A DNA stretch of 25,461 nt from positions 1 through 25,461 of IMG/VR virus record IMGVR_UViG_3300007346_000201. One strand, given 5' to 3'. Of this stretch, positions 5,134 through 22,823 are shown one piece after another (position 1 is the stretch's first letter; each line of letters starts with the position of its first letter). The position numbers were made by a program, and so were the translations under genes. The notes beneath the pieces were generated by a model. The model saw only the letters and a list, made by a program, of their open reading frames with translations. It had not been told where the DNA came from and did no database searches. The stretch comes from a virus.

Positions 5134-5388
5134 TCAAGAATTGCGCCAGTCAATGTTTCGTTCGTGACCCAAGTCAAAGTTCTGCTGAACGAAGCGGTTG
5201 AATTGACGACGGTGCTTTGGTGGAACAATGATTCCGCGCTGCGCGTCTTTGAACCAAACATATTCCTCCGCGCGTTGTGTCACGAAGTTGAAGCGCGTGC
5301 GCATTTCGTAATGCTTGCCCAATCCTTGGGTAATTTTGCGCATTGCATTCTTGGTTGCTTTTTCGGGGTTGAAGGTAATGTAATACAT
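5134..5388 (-). CDS. Small basic protein of unknown function
   Basis: Predicted 84-residue, strongly basic protein with aromatic clusters (MYYITF, EEYVWF) and a C-terminal 'PPKHRRQFNRFVQQNF'. I do not recognise a family. The ATG at 5388 was chosen because the open frame further upstream runs through promoter P1 (5425-5454), which is conserved as DNA at five other sites. The leader between promoter and ATG contains five GTTT repeats (CAAA on the coding strand) and ends in CTGTC before the ATG, close to the usual AGTCATG. This is the last gene of the inverted cassette and ends against the bidirectional terminator. A nucleic-acid-binding role is possible from its charge only. Confidence 0.7.
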   Translation of the reverse strand: MYYITFNPEKATKNAMRKITQGLGKHYEMRTRFNFVTQRAEEYVWFKDAQRGIIVPPKHRRQFNRFVQQNFDLGHERNIDWRNS

Positions 5389-5398
5389 GACAGAAAGT

Positions 5399-5418
5399 GT
5401 TTGTTTGTTTGTTTGTTT
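5399..5418. repeat. (GTTT)5 tetranucleotide repeat
   Basis: Five perfect GTTT units lie in the untranslated leader between promoter P1 and the 84-residue minus-strand gene; the transcript carries (AAAC)n. Other leaders have similar but shorter A/C-rich runs, so this could simply be an expanded version of the usual leader. Confidence 0.85.
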
Positions 5419-5424
5419 CTGCTG

Positions 5425-5454
5425 CAATAATATGGCGAACATTTCAAACGGCAA
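5425..5454 (-). promoter_or_regulatory. Promoter P1, Bacteroidota-type
   Basis: On the minus strand, TTG (5454-5452) inside CCATTGCC, a 19-base spacer beginning CCGTTTGAA and ending CGCCA, then TATTATTG (5432-5425). This differs by one base from the Bacteroidota -7 consensus TAnnTTTG. Upstream is an A/T-rich TTGAAT run. It is one of six promoters in the window with the same sequence and identical spacing, and it directs transcription of the 84-residue gene. Confidence 0.85.
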
Positions 5455-5483
5455 TGGAAAAATTCAAGTTTCTTGAAAAAACT

Positions 5484-5726
5484 TTATTTTTCGCTGAATT
5501 GCTTCAGCATTTGCAAGACTCCAATTGCGAATCCACGAAGCGCTTCAGCGCGTCGTTCGTCTGTTATCATTGACGCGAACGGGTCGTTTTCAAATTCGAC
5601 AATCCAATTGACGTCTTTGAATTTGACTTGGTAGGACGTTTCTTCGAACGAAAAGTGACGGTGAACTTCACACCAAGCGTCTTCAAAAAAGAACGCGACG
5701 AAGTTGCGGGAATTTTCTTGTGACAT
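5484..5726 (-). CDS. Small acidic protein of unknown function
   Basis: Predicted 80-residue protein, rich in Phe and acidic residues ('FVAFFFEDAWCEVHRHF', 'VNWIVEFENDPF'), ending in an amphipathic helix (GFAIGVLQMLKQFSEK). No family is recognised. The ATG at 5726 lies after a leader (gtcaaacattgaaacaagcagac) that shares the GTCAAACA and AAACAAGCAG elements of promoter-proximal leaders elsewhere. A longer frame upstream runs through the 5755-5808 hairpin and is not credible. No promoter of the P1-P6 type is present, so it is probably read through from the 5821-6114 gene across that hairpin. Confidence 0.7.
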   Translation of the reverse strand: MSQENSRNFVAFFFEDAWCEVHRHFSFEETSYQVKFKDVNWIVEFENDPFASMITDERRAEALRGFAIGVLQMLKQFSEK

Positions 5727-5754
5727 GTCTGCTTGTTTCAATGTTTGACAAAAC

Positions 5755-5808
5755 GGGGGCGCTGTTCGACGTTTCGCATTTGTACGCCTTTGAACGTTGC
5801 GCGCCCCC
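5755..5808 (-). terminator. Large GC-rich hairpin between minus genes
   Basis: A perfect 8-bp stem, gggggcgc (5755-5762) with gcgccccc (5801-5808), encloses a 38-base loop. On the minus strand it is followed by GTTTTG only, so termination is probably partial. Partial termination would set the ratio of the 97- and 80-residue products. Confidence 0.55.
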
Positions 5809-5820
5809 TTGTCCGTTGAT

Positions 5821-6114
5821 TCAATCAAATGCAACTGTTTGTGCAAAACGGTCGCGAAGAATGTGCTGCAAGTGCTTCCACAGAATGTCCGCCTTTGCGT
5901 CGCCCGAATGAAAAGTGTGTCCGTCATTCTTTTCAATGAATGCGTTCCATTCGTCTGCGTTTGTGTAAACTGGAACGTGACGTGTGTTCATTGGGCGGCA
6001 AGACTCCAATTCGTCTGTTGCGTATGTTTTGCCCAATTCAAAAGCGTCGTCAATAATGTTGCAAAGTTGTTCAGCAGTTACGTTGAAACGGTCGTTGTTG
6101 TTGTTGTTTTTCAT
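5821..6114 (-). CDS. Protein of unknown function with Asn-rich N-terminus
   Basis: Predicted 97-residue protein starting MKNNNNNDRF, followed by a helical region (VTAEQLCNIIDDAFELGKTY) and a His/Asp-containing C-terminal half (KNDGHTFHSGDAKADILWKHLQHIL). No family is recognised. The Asn run comes from AAC repeats. The ATG at 6114 is preceded by TTTTCAGTC, the start context shared across the window. An upstream in-frame ATG at 6146 is only about four bases from the -7 box of P2 and would leave essentially no leader. First gene of its transcript. Confidence 0.75.
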   Translation of the reverse strand: MKNNNNNDRFNVTAEQLCNIIDDAFELGKTYATDELESCRPMNTRHVPVYTNADEWNAFIEKNDGHTFHSGDAKADILWKHLQHILRDRFAQTVAFD

Positions 6115-6149
6115 GACTGAAAATGTTTGTTTGTTGTTGTTTGACATGA

Positions 6150-6179
6150 CAATACTACGGTGACATTTTCGAACGGCAA
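6150..6179 (-). promoter_or_regulatory. Promoter P2, Bacteroidota-type
   Basis: On the minus strand, TTG (6179-6177) in CCATTGCC, a 19-base spacer (starting CCGTTCGAA), then TAGTATTG (6157-6150), one base from TAnnTTTG. The predicted transcript starts near TCATGTCAAACAAC, sharing GTCAAAC with P3-P6. It drives the 97-residue gene and perhaps the next one. Confidence 0.85.
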
Positions 6180-6223
6180 TGGAAAAAGTCAAAAACTTTG
6201 CATTTTTCTTCGGTCGCGTTTGT

Positions 6224-6580
6224 TCAGTACATGTTCGAAACGCGTTCGTTCAAACCGTAGTCAAGCAAAACAACACGACCGTTCAAGCGCCCCCAGTTCG
6301 CAGAATTGAACAAGTCTGTTTTTGTCACGTTCAAATGCGGAATTGAATCAACGACTTTCAAAATGTGTTCGTGTTCAATTGACGAAACGGGAAAAGCGCG
6401 GGATTGACAAACAACTCCGCAAAACGACCAAAGCAGCGGAACAAGCAAGTCTGTTTGTTTGTACGCGTGCCACGTTTTGCGTTCATTCACTCCTTGCAAA
6501 TATCCGCGTTTTGACAATGGAATTTTCAGCGCCCATTCACCAAACAAAATGACGAAGCGTGTTGAAAGTCGAAATTGCAT
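6224..6580 (-). CDS. Miniature kinase-like protein (putative)
   Basis: Predicted 118-residue protein with what looks like a compressed protein-kinase/aminoglycoside-phosphotransferase core. A strand-turn-strand ends in WALKIP (Lys 19, VAIK-like). Next comes a helix with NERKTW (Glu 33, alpha-C-like), a hydrophobic segment (LLVPLLWSFCGVVCQS) leading to a hinge-like RAFPV, a helix, then KTDLFNSANWG (Asp 89, Asn 95) and VVLLDYG (Asp 107-Gly 109, DFG-like). Asp 89 to Asp 107 is 18 residues, the usual spacing between the catalytic-loop and DFG aspartates; Asn is at +6 rather than +5. Everything after DFG, including an activation loop and large C-lobe, is missing. The ATG at 6580 follows TTTCTTTGAAA, downstream of a hairpin. 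A role in modifying host proteins is inference. Confidence 0.5.
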   Translation of the reverse strand: MQFRLSTRFVILFGEWALKIPLSKRGYLQGVNERKTWHAYKQTDLLVPLLWSFCGVVCQSRAFPVSSIEHEHILKVVDSIPHLNVTKTDLFNSANWGRLNGRVVLLDYGLNERVSNMY

Positions 6581-6596
6581 TTTCAAAGAAACGAAA

Positions 6597-6620
6597 CAAG
6601 CGGACAAAAATGCCCGCTTG
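6597..6620 (-). terminator. Hairpin after the 145-residue minus gene
   Basis: A 7-bp perfect stem (caagcgg 6597-6603 with ccgcttg 6614-6620) with a 10-base loop sits 22 bases past the upstream stop codon. The minus strand continues TTTCGTTTCTTTG, a broken T tract. It probably attenuates rather than fully stops transcription, because the next gene has no promoter of its own. Confidence 0.55.
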
Positions 6621-6641
6621 CGTCGCTCAACCAATAACCTG

Positions 6642-7079
6642 TTAACCAAGCAGAAGACGCGTTTGTTTCGCGTCTTGCGCAATATAGCCCAACTGAAACA
6701 AAACAGTTTTCCCTTCTTCAGTCACAACGTATTTTGTCGACTTGTTTGACGTCGGTGCAATGTCTTTGACAAGTTCACGACGCGCCAAAGTTTCAAGTTG
6801 TCGCGGCTTGCGCCCAATTTTTGAATGTTCAATGTTGACTGCGTTCCAAACGTCGTACAACATGGAACGTTCGTCTTGTCGCAATTCAAGCGCTTCACGC
6901 AGTTCGAATTTCAAACTTTCGTGCTTCACGCGCAATTGACTTTGCAACAAAATGACTTGGTGAAGTTGCTGCGTTGTCCAGTTCAATTCGTCGGGCGAAA
7001 CTTGAAGCAAGCGCGCAAGCGCGTTGTCTGCGTCTTGAATAAGCGGAAGCAGTGTCGCTTTTGGTGTTGTTGTGTTCAT
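6642..7079 (-). CDS. Unknown protein, helical with winged-helix-like C-terminus
   Basis: Predicted 145-residue protein. Residues about 10-85 are mostly helical and charged (DADNALARLLQVSP, VILLQSQLRVKHESLKFELREALELRQDE), suggesting a coiled coil. Residues about 95-135 (RKPRQLETLARRELVKDI, then STKYVVTEEGKTVLFQLGY) read like a winged-helix: a recognition-type helix followed by a beta hairpin. A DNA-binding or regulatory role is a guess from that shape. The ATG at 7079 follows the stop of the 76-residue gene by 19 bases, with an A/T-rich leader. It belongs to the transcript started at P3. Confidence 0.7.
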   Translation of the reverse strand: MNTTTPKATLLPLIQDADNALARLLQVSPDELNWTTQQLHQVILLQSQLRVKHESLKFELREALELRQDERSMLYDVWNAVNIEHSKIGRKPRQLETLARRELVKDIAPTSNKSTKYVVTEEGKTVLFQLGYIAQDAKQTRLLLG

Positions 7080-7098
7080 TTGTATGAATTAAAAATTT

Positions 7099-7329
7099 CT
7101 ATTCTGCAAGTGCAAAGCCAACGCTGTTTGTTGTGGGTTGTTTCAAAATCAACCCTTCAACTTTGCAAAACCATGTGGGCGACCAAACGACGTCAAACGT
7201 CCAAAGAACGTTCGCAATTCGAATTGCTGCGTCTTTTTTCAGAACGTGTTTTTGCAGCGCGTTTGACAATTCTGTTCTGTTTTCAGCAGTGACAAAAACG
7301 CCCGCGTCAATGTTGTAAAAAGTTCGCAT
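7099..7329 (-). CDS. Small protein of unknown function
   Basis: Predicted 76-residue protein beginning MRTFYNIDAGVFVTAENRTEL, with a Trp-rich middle (VLWTFDVVWSPTWFC) and a beta-strand-like end. No family is recognised. Its ATG at 7329 is one base after the TGA of the preceding gene (TGAC-ATG), so translation is probably coupled. Fourth gene from promoter P3. Confidence 0.7.
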   Translation of the reverse strand: MRTFYNIDAGVFVTAENRTELSNALQKHVLKKDAAIRIANVLWTFDVVWSPTWFCKVEGLILKQPTTNSVGFALAE

Positions 7330-7330
7330 G

Positions 7331-7621
7331 TCAGTCGTTTTCGGTAAATTTCAAAAACGTGTACAAACGAACTTCAAGACAGTCTGCATACATTCCCGAA
7401 ATGTCGCAACGCGCAAAGAACGTTTCGCTTTGTTGAATTGGAAGTGTCCATGTTATTGCTTCGAATTCGCCGAATTCGCGAAACATGTACGACACGCTTT
7501 CTTGAACGAAGTCGTTCAACATTTTTCTTTCGTCACTGGACAAAGCAGTGAAGTCGTCATTGTTAAGGGCTGCCGCATACGGCGCGGCAACCCTGAATGT
7601 GTCAATGAATTGTGCTTTCAT
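7331..7621 (-). CDS. Small protein of unknown function
   Basis: Predicted 96-residue protein with an N-terminal helical half (NNDDFTALSSDERKMLNDFV) and a beta-rich C-terminal half (FEAITWTLPI, then TFFARCDISGMYADCLEVRLY). I do not recognise a named family. The start overlaps the previous stop as TAATG at 7621-7619, a translational-coupling arrangement. Confidence 0.7.
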   Translation of the reverse strand: MKAQFIDTFRVAAPYAAALNNDDFTALSSDERKMLNDFVQESVSYMFREFGEFEAITWTLPIQQSETFFARCDISGMYADCLEVRLYTFLKFTEND

Positions 7622-7932
7622 TACAGTGAAATTTCGGCATGATTTAAGCGAACGTAAAAAGTCACGCAGTCTGAATGTTCAGAAAACGAAACGTTCAATT
7701 GACCAAACGCTTCGCAAAGTTCGTCCCAACAAGCGCGAAAGTCGTCATTGGACAAAACGTCGGTGACCATTTCACAAGTGTACATGACGCGGTTCAAATT
7801 GGTATTGTGAACGGCAATGCAACAAATGTCTGCAACAATGTTTGCTGCTTGTCGCAAAAGCGTTTCGCAGTCTTCGTGAATGGTTTCGCACCATTCGTTG
7901 CGTTCTGCAACTGTTGGAATTTTTGTGTTCAT
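7621..7932 (-). CDS. Cys-rich protein of unknown function
   Basis: Predicted 103-residue protein with eight Cys (at WCETI, DCETLL, DICCIAV, YTCEM, ACWDELCEAF, DCVTF), otherwise helical and acidic. No regular CxxC pairing for a zinc site is seen; CC in ICCIA is the only adjacent pair. The ATG at 7932 is preceded by ACAAACAGTC, the standard start context, whereas the longer frame from 7965 runs into the 7955-7977 hairpin. Second gene of the P3 transcript and coupled to the next gene by TAATG. Confidence 0.72.
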   Translation of the reverse strand: MNTKIPTVAERNEWCETIHEDCETLLRQAANIVADICCIAVHNTNLNRVMYTCEMVTDVLSNDDFRACWDELCEAFGQLNVSFSEHSDCVTFYVRLNHAEISL

Positions 7933-7954
7933 GACTGTTTGTGTGAATGATGAA

Positions 7955-7977
7955 CCCCCGTCCACTTTGAACGGGGG
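7955..7977 (-). terminator. GC hairpin between first and second P3 genes
   Basis: A 7-bp stem (cccccgt 7955-7961 with acggggg 7971-7977) and nine-base loop. There is no T tract on the minus strand (TTCATCATT follows), so this may protect mRNA ends or attenuate transcription rather than terminate it fully. Confidence 0.5.
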
Positions 7978-7991
7978 CGTTGTTTGTTCGA

Positions 7992-8159
7992 TTATGCTTG
8001 CAAGGATTTAATTGCGCGCAAGTACGCGAACCACGCGCGGTCGGAAATGTGCTTTGTTGCAGCGTGCTTTGCTTGTTCGGTGTACAACGCTGAAATTTTT
8101 TCTTCAGTTGTTGTGTTGCTGTTCAAGATTGAAGCAATGGTGTTGTAAATGCTGTTCAT
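7992..8159 (-). CDS. 55-residue protein of unknown function
   Basis: Small, predicted all-helical protein (MNSIYNTIASILNSNTTTEE, then a Lys/Ala-rich helix ending RAIKSLQA). No family is recognised. The start at 8159 carries the full standard context AACAGTCATGAA about 30 bases downstream of promoter P3, so it is the promoter-proximal, probably most abundant, product of the longest minus-strand transcript. A longer frame from 8231 would run back through the promoter and is rejected. Confidence 0.75.
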   Translation of the reverse strand: MNSIYNTIASILNSNTTTEEKISALYTEQAKHAATKHISDRAWFAYLRAIKSLQA

Positions 8160-8188
8160 GACTGTTTGTTTTTCGTTGTTTGACATTG

Positions 8189-8218
8189 CAATAATATGGT
8201 GGGAAGACCGAACGGCAA
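8189..8218 (-). promoter_or_regulatory. Promoter P3, Bacteroidota-type
   Basis: On the minus strand, TTG (8218-8216) in CCTTGCCG, a 19-base spacer (starting CCGTTCGG, ending CCCACCA), then TATTATTG (8196-8189). The transcript would begin around AATGTCAAACAACG. It drives at least 7992-8159 through 6642-7079 and probably the kinase-like gene. Confidence 0.85.
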
Positions 8219-8335
8219 GGACTAAATGCAAGAAAATTGAAGAAAAGTTTGCTGGAAGTCGGGAAACGCAAGGTTGGTGTGCGTTGGCTTAACCCAAAAA
8301 AATTCGTGGAATATCTTCGCAAAAAGCAAAATGAC

Positions 8336-22090: not shown

Positions 22091-22120
22091 TTGCCGTTTG
22101 AATTAGGCGACATATCTTTG
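22091..22120 (+). promoter_or_regulatory. Promoter P5, Bacteroidota-type
   Basis: TTG (22091-22093) in CCATTGCC, a 19-base spacer starting CCGTTTGAATTAGG, and TATCTTTG (22113-22120). It shares CCATTGCCGTTTGAATTAGG (20 bases) with P6. Upstream TTGAAAAAAA could be an UP-type element. It drives 22151-22714. Confidence 0.9.
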
Positions 22121-22793: not shown

Positions 22794-22823
22794 TTGCCGT
22801 TTGAATTAGGCACCATATATTTG
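22794..22823 (+). promoter_or_regulatory. Promoter P6, Bacteroidota-type
   Basis: TTG (22794-22796) in CCATTGCC, 19-base spacer, then TATATTTG (22816-22823). Leader GTCAAACACAC...TTCAGTC. It drives 22854 onward and, because no further promoter is seen, probably the nuclease and OB-fold genes too. Confidence 0.9.

What the first reader, a model, noticed from the sequence alone, without database searches (positions are those of the whole stretch)
6224..6580. Miniature kinase-like protein in the inverted early cassette
The sequence shows, in order, Lys in WALKIP, Glu in NERKTW, a hinge-like RAFPV, KTDL...NWG and VVLLDYG. The two aspartates are 18 residues apart, as in the catalytic-loop/DFG pair of kinases and APH enzymes. 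The whole protein is only 118 residues and stops nine residues after DYG, far below normal kinase size. An early phage protein of this form could be a stripped-down phosphotransferase or a nucleotide-binding pseudokinase. T7 gp0.7 is an established example of an early phage kinase, but it is not a homologue as far as I can see.
Basis: partly seen in the sequence, partly recalled or inferred. Interest (0 to 1): 0.66.

Follow-up and report, generated by a model that had tools for sequence, protein, structure and literature searches.

The report
Miniature kinase-fold protein in phages
This phage gene encodes a 118-residue protein with the ATP-binding half and the complete catalytic residue set of a protein kinase but almost none of the usual second half; it belongs to a large, selectively maintained and essentially unstudied family found across many phages and some bacteria, and it may be one of the smallest kinase-type enzymes.

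Summary
The ORF at 6224-6580 (minus strand, 118 aa) belongs to a family (phrog_4301, "unknown function") found in Flavobacterium, T4-like, jumbo and many uncultured phages, with a chromosomal clade in Clostridia. The residues named from one sequence are conserved: K19, E33, D89, N95 and D107 in 20/20 window-type homologues, and the catalytic-position Asp in 96/96 sequences of four clades. AlphaFold2 gives a confident kinase N-lobe, hinge, catalytic loop, beta7-beta8 and DYG (pLDDT 89), with no activation segment or helices F-I. The top fold matches are almost all kinases: Ark1, Rio2, TTK and ACVR1 for the window model; OspG, NleH, HopBF1, APH and PRPK for a glycine-loop relative. The short length is real: the nine-residue tail is conserved, three contigs agree, and dN/dS is about 0.07-0.42. 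Pfam and NCBIfam have no model for it. Conservation of the catalytic Asp favours real phosphotransfer over a pure pseudokinase, but activity, substrate and any partner are untested, and a comparably trimmed SteC construct is reported inactive. I call it a new variant of a known kind: a C-lobe-less phage mini-kinase. "Early" expression is not shown.

The parts
6224..6580 (-). Mini-kinase gene, 118 aa, ATG at 6580-6578, stop codon 6226-6224
   Evidence: Identical gene in L002 and L003. phrog_4301 E 6.5e-17.
6401..6577 (-). Kinase N-lobe, residues 2-60: beta1 2-5, beta2 8-13, beta3 16-21, alphaC 24-43, beta4 49-53, beta5 56-60
   Evidence: AlphaFold2 model, pLDDT 89.2, pTM 0.80.
6557..6559 (-). 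Arg8 of STRxV, the invariant Arg that stands where ordinary kinases have the last Gly of the glycine-rich loop
   Evidence: R8 20/20 in the window clade, R31 47/47 in group A. The functional reading is inference.
6524..6526 (-). Lys19, beta3 ATP-binding Lys (VAIK-type, here ALKIP)
   Evidence: 20/20.
6482..6484 (-). Glu33, alphaC Glu that would pair with Lys19
   Evidence: 20/20. alphaC is modelled at residues 24-43.
6386..6400 (-). Hinge-like segment RAFPV, residues 61-65
   Evidence: Position directly after beta5 in the model.
6344..6373 (-). Single short helix, residues 70-79, in place of helices D and E
   Evidence: AlphaFold2 model.
6296..6316 (-). Catalytic loop D89-L-F-N-S-A-N95 (HRDxKxxN equivalent, one residue longer)
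   Evidence: D89 and N95 20/20. Asp at N-6 in 36/36 window-type plus Clostridia sequences, at N-5 in 60/60 others.
6254..6262 (-). DYG, residues 107-109 (DFG metal-binding equivalent)
   Evidence: 20/20.
6227..6253 (-). Conserved nine-residue C-terminal tail LNERVSNMY (family form I-x-E-R-I-S-x-M-Y)
   Evidence: Tail length median 9 in 20 homologues. Y118 19/20.
8189..8218 (-). Promoter-like element TTG-N19-TANNATTG upstream of the minus-strand cassette that includes the gene
   Evidence: Five copies in the window, none expected in shuffles.
5134..8231 (-). Inverted cassette of small ORFs between the protease/major head protein ORF and a head-tail adaptor gene
   Evidence: ORF list. Flanks identified by PHROGs.

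Best explanation
The gene encodes a mini-kinase: a kinase N-lobe plus hinge, catalytic loop, beta7-beta8 and metal-binding DYG, and nothing after it except a nine-residue tail. Most likely it binds ATP-Mg through K19, E33, N95 and D107 and transfers phosphate with D89 as catalytic Asp. The invariant Arg of STRxV may help hold the phosphates in place of a glycine loop. Because the substrate-binding helices F-I and the activation segment are missing, the substrate platform is probably supplied by a dimer partner or by the target itself, a host or phage macromolecule modified during infection. Shown: the fold by prediction, the residue conservation, the conserved short length, purifying selection, the wide phage distribution. 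Inferred: nucleotide binding, catalysis, the dimer or partner, and the role in infection.
For: Confident models of the window protein (pLDDT 89.2) and of a glycine-loop relative (pLDDT 92.8). Foldseek PDB top matches: RNA kinase Ark1, TTK and Rio2 for the window (prob 0.96-1.00); OspG, NleH, HopBF1, APH(2'') and PRPK for the relative. VIA-align Z up to 9.7 over 113-114 residues, and Ark1 Z 8.8 at 2.6 A over 104 residues. The sequence profile of the glycine-loop group hits only kinases among PDB sequences (7 of 7, weak E 0.4-4). The two groups align at hhalign probability 99.3%, E 1.6e-20. K, E, D, N and D are invariant; the catalytic Asp is present in 96/96, a residue needed for transfer rather than for nucleotide binding. 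dN/dS is 0.07-0.42 in pairs with measurable dS.
Against: No activity data exist. The C-lobe is almost absent. In SteC, constructs ending near this point (200-377 and 210-375) were inactive in vitro while 210-429 was active (PMC13395416). The window branch has no glycine-rich loop, and its catalytic loop is one residue longer than usual. Foldseek E-values for the window model are modest (best 6.5e-3). No Pfam or NCBIfam kinase model is hit. A few family members carry Glu instead of the catalytic Asp (for example OBP and AH04; sequences).
Confidence: 0.6

Rival explanations
1. Pseudokinase: the protein binds ATP or another nucleotide through the intact N-lobe and acts as a binding partner, decoy or inhibitor of a host kinase or nucleotide-sensing protein, without transferring phosphate.
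For: The C-lobe that normally binds substrate is missing. There is no glycine-rich loop. Trimmed SteC constructs are inactive. Some distant family members replace the catalytic Asp with Glu (sequences).
Against: The catalytic-position Asp is kept in 96/96 sequences of four clades. Pseudokinases usually lose this residue (general knowledge).
Confidence: 0.25
2. RNA kinase of the ArkI type: it phosphorylates tRNA or another RNA during infection, for example to protect phage or host RNA from nucleases.
For: The best Foldseek match of the window model is the RNA kinase Ark1 (prob 1.00, TM 0.61; Z 8.8). The Dhakavirus JS10 member is directly next to rnlB, and the Tequatrovirus member is two genes from a tRNA cluster.
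Against: In 60 loci only six carry any tRNA gene and the window has none, so there is no general tRNA link. ArkI has HGQ and DFE motifs and a C-terminal YKR helix (PMC9095486), none of which is present here. Ark1 is tied with protein kinases in the fold search.
Confidence: 0.1
3. A non-kinase member of the wider fold group (SAICAR synthetase / PIPK-like N-lobe) with other ATP chemistry.
For: SAICAR synthetases appear among the structural matches (Z 8.6 and 8.4).
Against: The D-x-x-x-x-N, DYG and VAIK-like signatures and their order are those of the kinase/APH group. Kinases dominate all fold lists.
Confidence: 0.03
4. Chance resemblance in a small unrelated phage protein.
For: Short motifs in one 118-aa protein can arise by chance, and single-sequence database searches find no kinase.
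Against: The fold prediction, the PDB profile hits and the invariance of the motif residues in dozens of divergent homologues.
Confidence: 0.02

Closest known systems
phrog_4301 (PHROGs v4, unknown function)
   Same: Same family by sequence: E 6.5e-17 for the window, down to 8e-59 for other members.
   Different: The PHROG has no function assigned. Many members have a glycine-rich loop and a longer C-terminus than the window protein.
Minimal bacterial effector kinases OspG, NleH and HopBF1
   Same: Kinase fold with a depleted C-lobe; top Foldseek matches of the glycine-loop relative. OspG needs a bound E2-ubiquitin partner for activity (quoted in PMC13395416), a possible model for a partner-dependent kinase.
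   Different: Solved chains of about 160-175 residues; injected into eukaryotic cells; keep more of the C-lobe. No sequence relationship was shown here.
Archaeal/bacterial tRNA kinase ArkI (Ark1)
   Same: Best structural match of the window model, small bilobal kinase lacking ePK subdomains VIII and X.
   Different: HGQ instead of a catalytic Asp, DFE instead of DFG, C-terminal YKR helix, about 170-216 residues, and a glycine loop.
Bud32/PRPK, Rio1/Rio2 and APH(2'') small kinases
   Same: Kinase-like fold with Lys, Glu, Asp, Asn and Asp; recurrent in the fold lists.
   Different: Twice the size or more, with full C-lobes. No Pfam match to their families.
YrbL (PF10707)
   Same: The only Pfam family weakly matched by several relatives (9 of 47 members, best E 0.017, below the curated cut-off).
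   Different: Profile length 185, function unclear, not matched by the window protein.
T7 gp0.7
   Same: A phage-encoded kinase made early in infection (established knowledge).
   Different: No relationship was tested or seen here.

Membership tests
Protein kinase-like superfamily (ePK/APH group) | Beta3 Lys, alphaC Glu, catalytic Asp, catalytic-loop Asn and DFG Asp in order | tested here: met
   K19, E33, D89, N95 and D107 in 20/20 homologues; catalytic Asp 96/96 in four clades.
Protein kinase-like superfamily (ePK/APH group) | Kinase N-lobe: five-stranded sheet plus alphaC | tested here: met
   AlphaFold2 pLDDT 89.2. Fold matches are kinases.
Protein kinase-like superfamily (ePK/APH group) | Glycine-rich loop GxGxxG | tested here: not met
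   The window branch has STRxV with no glycine. Relatives in group A keep GxGxxR (46/47 at the second Gly).
Protein kinase-like superfamily (ePK/APH group) | Helical C-lobe with helix F and activation segment | tested here: not met
   The protein ends nine residues after DYG.
Protein kinase-like superfamily (ePK/APH group) | ATP binding and phosphotransfer | not testable with these tools
   Needs biochemistry.
Pfam PF00069 / PF01636 families | Match to a curated kinase or APH profile | tested here: inconclusive
   No match at E 10 for the window or its relatives and none at E 5 for further relatives. Such divergence does not exclude homology.
phrog_4301 | Profile match over most of the protein | tested here: met
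   E 6.5e-17, residues 6-116.
ArkI tRNA kinase | HGQ catalytic motif, DFE motif and C-terminal YKR helix (PMC9095486) | tested here: not met
   The sequence has D89 and DYG and ends at residue 118.
OspG/NleH/HopBF1 effector kinases | Sequence or structural membership of these families | tested here: inconclusive
   They are the best structural matches of a relative, but no sequence link was found and they were not listed for the window model.

The most novel reading that the evidence does not exclude
Phages widely encode genuinely active kinases of only about 115-125 residues that end just after the metal-binding DYG. That would make them the smallest kinase-fold phosphotransferases known, showing that the whole helical C-lobe and the glycine-rich loop can be dispensed with when a dimer partner or the target supplies the substrate platform.
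Probability: 0.4. Interest if true: 0.82.

Novelty: new variant of a known kind. Interest (0 to 1): 0.62.

Why it matters
If active, these proteins would set a new lower size limit for the kinase fold and show which parts are dispensable, a question normally approached only with designed truncations. They occur in well-studied laboratory phages of E. coli (Dhakavirus JS10, Seuratvirus Skure, Asteriusvirus PBECO4) and in a cultured Flavobacterium phage group, so a family listed as unknown function becomes directly testable for a role in host takeover. The same fold stands alone in clostridial chromosomes, which suggests cellular functions as well.

Tried and rejected
The profile of the window clade and its closest relatives alone found no kinase in PDB sequences, only designed repeat proteins; hhalign against one clostridial kinase lined up the catalytic loop and DFG but was not significant (ABC-transporter control). 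tRNA association as a clue to an RNA kinase: not general. Kinase-phosphatase pairing: a phosphoesterase gene within 1 kb in only 3 of 34 window-type or related loci, all from one sub-clade, and in 0 of 52 group A loci. Truncation by sequencing error: rejected. An upstream extension carrying a glycine loop: the in-frame stretch upstream of 6580 has no such motif, and homologues start at the same place. Ten literature searches found no description of this family; the library holds open-access papers only, so 'undescribed' is not proven.

Full report
Observation. The ORF at 6224-6580 on the minus strand encodes the 118-residue protein described, with every motif at the stated place. Two other IMG/VR contigs carry the identical gene, stop codon included, over 357/357 nt. 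It lies in a minus-strand cassette of small ORFs (about 5134-8231) between the protease/major head protein ORF and a head-tail adaptor gene.

Family. PHROGs places it in phrog_4301, unknown function, E 6.5e-17. tblastn against annotated phages finds 103 records, the weakest at E up to 10: Flavobacterium elemoviruses (39% identity), Asteriusvirus, Seuratvirus Skure, Dhakavirus JS10, Tequatrovirus G4507, Rhizobium, Klebsiella, Pseudomonas and Erwinia phages; the representatives fetched were each confirmed by a strong phrog_4301 match. Nearly all are 'hypothetical protein'; among the rows listed only Erwinia phage AH04 has it as 'serine/threonine kinase'. A tree of 77 sequences resolves four groups: the window clade (20), a longer KIP group (13), a glycine-loop group (28) and a clostridial chromosomal clade (16); the first, third and fourth are well supported, and the order between groups is weak. 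Window-type and glycine-loop groups are related at hhalign probability 99.3%, E 1.6e-20.

Conservation. In 20 window-type sequences K19, E33, D89, N95 and D107 are all invariant, with R8, P21, G26, Q29, G30, N32 and G97. In 47 glycine-loop sequences the matching Lys, Glu, Asp, Asn and Asp are 47/47. The pattern fixed the Asn and DYG; Lys, Glu and the catalytic Asp were not selected. The catalytic Asp is present in 96/96 sequences, five residues before the Asn in two groups and six before it in the window and clostridial groups. A few annotated members outside this set (OBP, AH04) have Glu there. Lengths after DYG are tightly kept (median 9 in the window clade), and dN/dS is about 0.07-0.42 in pairs with measurable dS. 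The protein is therefore a maintained short form, not a decaying fragment.

Fold. AlphaFold2 on 59 sequences gives the window protein pLDDT 89.2 and pTM 0.80: beta1-beta3, alphaC, beta4-beta5, hinge, one short helix, catalytic loop, beta7-beta8, DYG, tail. A glycine-loop relative reaches 92.8. Foldseek against the PDB puts archaeal RNA kinase Ark1, TTK and Rio2 on top for the window (E 6.5e-3 to 1.3e-2, prob 0.96-1.00), and OspG, NleH, HopBF1, APH(2'') and PRPK for the relative (best E 1.8e-4). VIA-align gives Z 9.7 to ACVR1 (2.9 A, 113-114 residues) and Z 8.8 to Ark1 (2.6 A, 104 residues), modestly above the 7-8 the tool calls common. In the viral structure library the best match, a 117-residue protein at 37% identity (the length of the elemo homologue), superposes at TM 0.92, and many further matches carry protein-kinase names. 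The profile of the glycine-loop group hits only kinases among PDB sequences (7 of 7, weak). These lines together make the kinase fold close to certain for the family (my estimate 0.95).

Mechanism. What is missing is the activation segment, helices F-I and, in this branch, the glycine loop. The published SteC data show that a kinase domain cut at a similar point can be inactive while a longer one works (PMC13395416), and OspG needs a bound partner. The window protein could therefore be (a) an enzyme completed by dimerisation or by its target, or (b) a nucleotide-binding pseudokinase. The invariance of the catalytic Asp favours (a), because nucleotide binding alone does not need it. I put active phosphotransfer at about 0.6 and pseudokinase at 0.25. 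An ArkI-like RNA kinase is a specific option suggested by the best fold match, but ArkI's own motifs are absent (PMC9095486) and tRNA genes are not generally nearby.

Context. Five copies of TTGCCGTT-N14-TANNNTTG occur in the window against none in 100 shuffles. Three are on the minus strand in the cassette and two on the plus strand near 22.1 and 22.8 kb. TTG-N19-TANNTTTG resembles the known Bacteroidota -33/-7 promoter (established knowledge), which fits the relatedness to Flavobacterium phages. The kinase gene would lie in the unit starting at 8218; the next gene has its own copy at 6179. This makes shared regulation likely but does not show early expression.

Novelty. Kinase-like proteins are known in phages, and C-lobe-depleted kinases are known among bacterial effectors. 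A selectively maintained, phage-wide family of about 118-150 residues with all catalytic residues is, as far as the ten literature searches in an open-access library show, undescribed. I rate it a new variant of a known kind.

Noticed in passing
window 5425-5454(-), 6150-6179(-), 8189-8218(-), 22091-22120(+), 22794-22823(+): Five copies of TTGCCGTT-N14-TANNNTTG (0 expected by shuffling), inside 77-79 nt dispersed repeats upstream of small ORFs; probably a phage-specific Bacteroidota-type promoter class linking the inverted cassette with the right-end genes.
   Followed up: partly
L145-L149, L153, L154, L160, L164, L167, L169, L178, L182, L183, L185, L189: Chromosomal mini-kinase clade of about 155 aa in Clostridium and Lachnospiraceae with full glycine loop, D-x-x-x-x-x-N spacing as in the window, and a conserved tail (GFTREVRxKYY); in L175, L178 and L185 the neighbours look like ordinary chromosomal genes. 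No Pfam or NCBIfam model.
   Followed up: partly
L025, L026, L063, L076, L081, L084, L099 and others: Glycine-loop mini-kinases often sit directly next to large structural genes that look like terminase or portal (by eye, not verified).
   Followed up: no
L028:1386-1739, L029:4517-4873, L035:3794-4147: In one sub-clade a calcineurin-like phosphoesterase gene lies immediately upstream of the mini-kinase, overlapping its start in L028; not general (3 of 34 loci within 1 kb).
   Followed up: yes
L010:2974-3342 and L013:2977-3357: Dhakavirus JS10 mini-kinase is directly upstream of rnlB (RNA ligase); Tequatrovirus G4507 mini-kinase is two genes from the tRNA cluster.
   Followed up: partly
window 6642-7079(-): Neighbouring 145-aa ORF with a weak winged-helix match (HTH_45 E 0.022, below cut-off); possible regulator of the cassette.
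   Followed up: no
L030 and L101: Longer phage proteins (290-320 aa frames) end in the same catalytic-loop/DYG signature, with an LGEGSSR glycine loop in L030; probably a larger phage kinase family.
   Followed up: no
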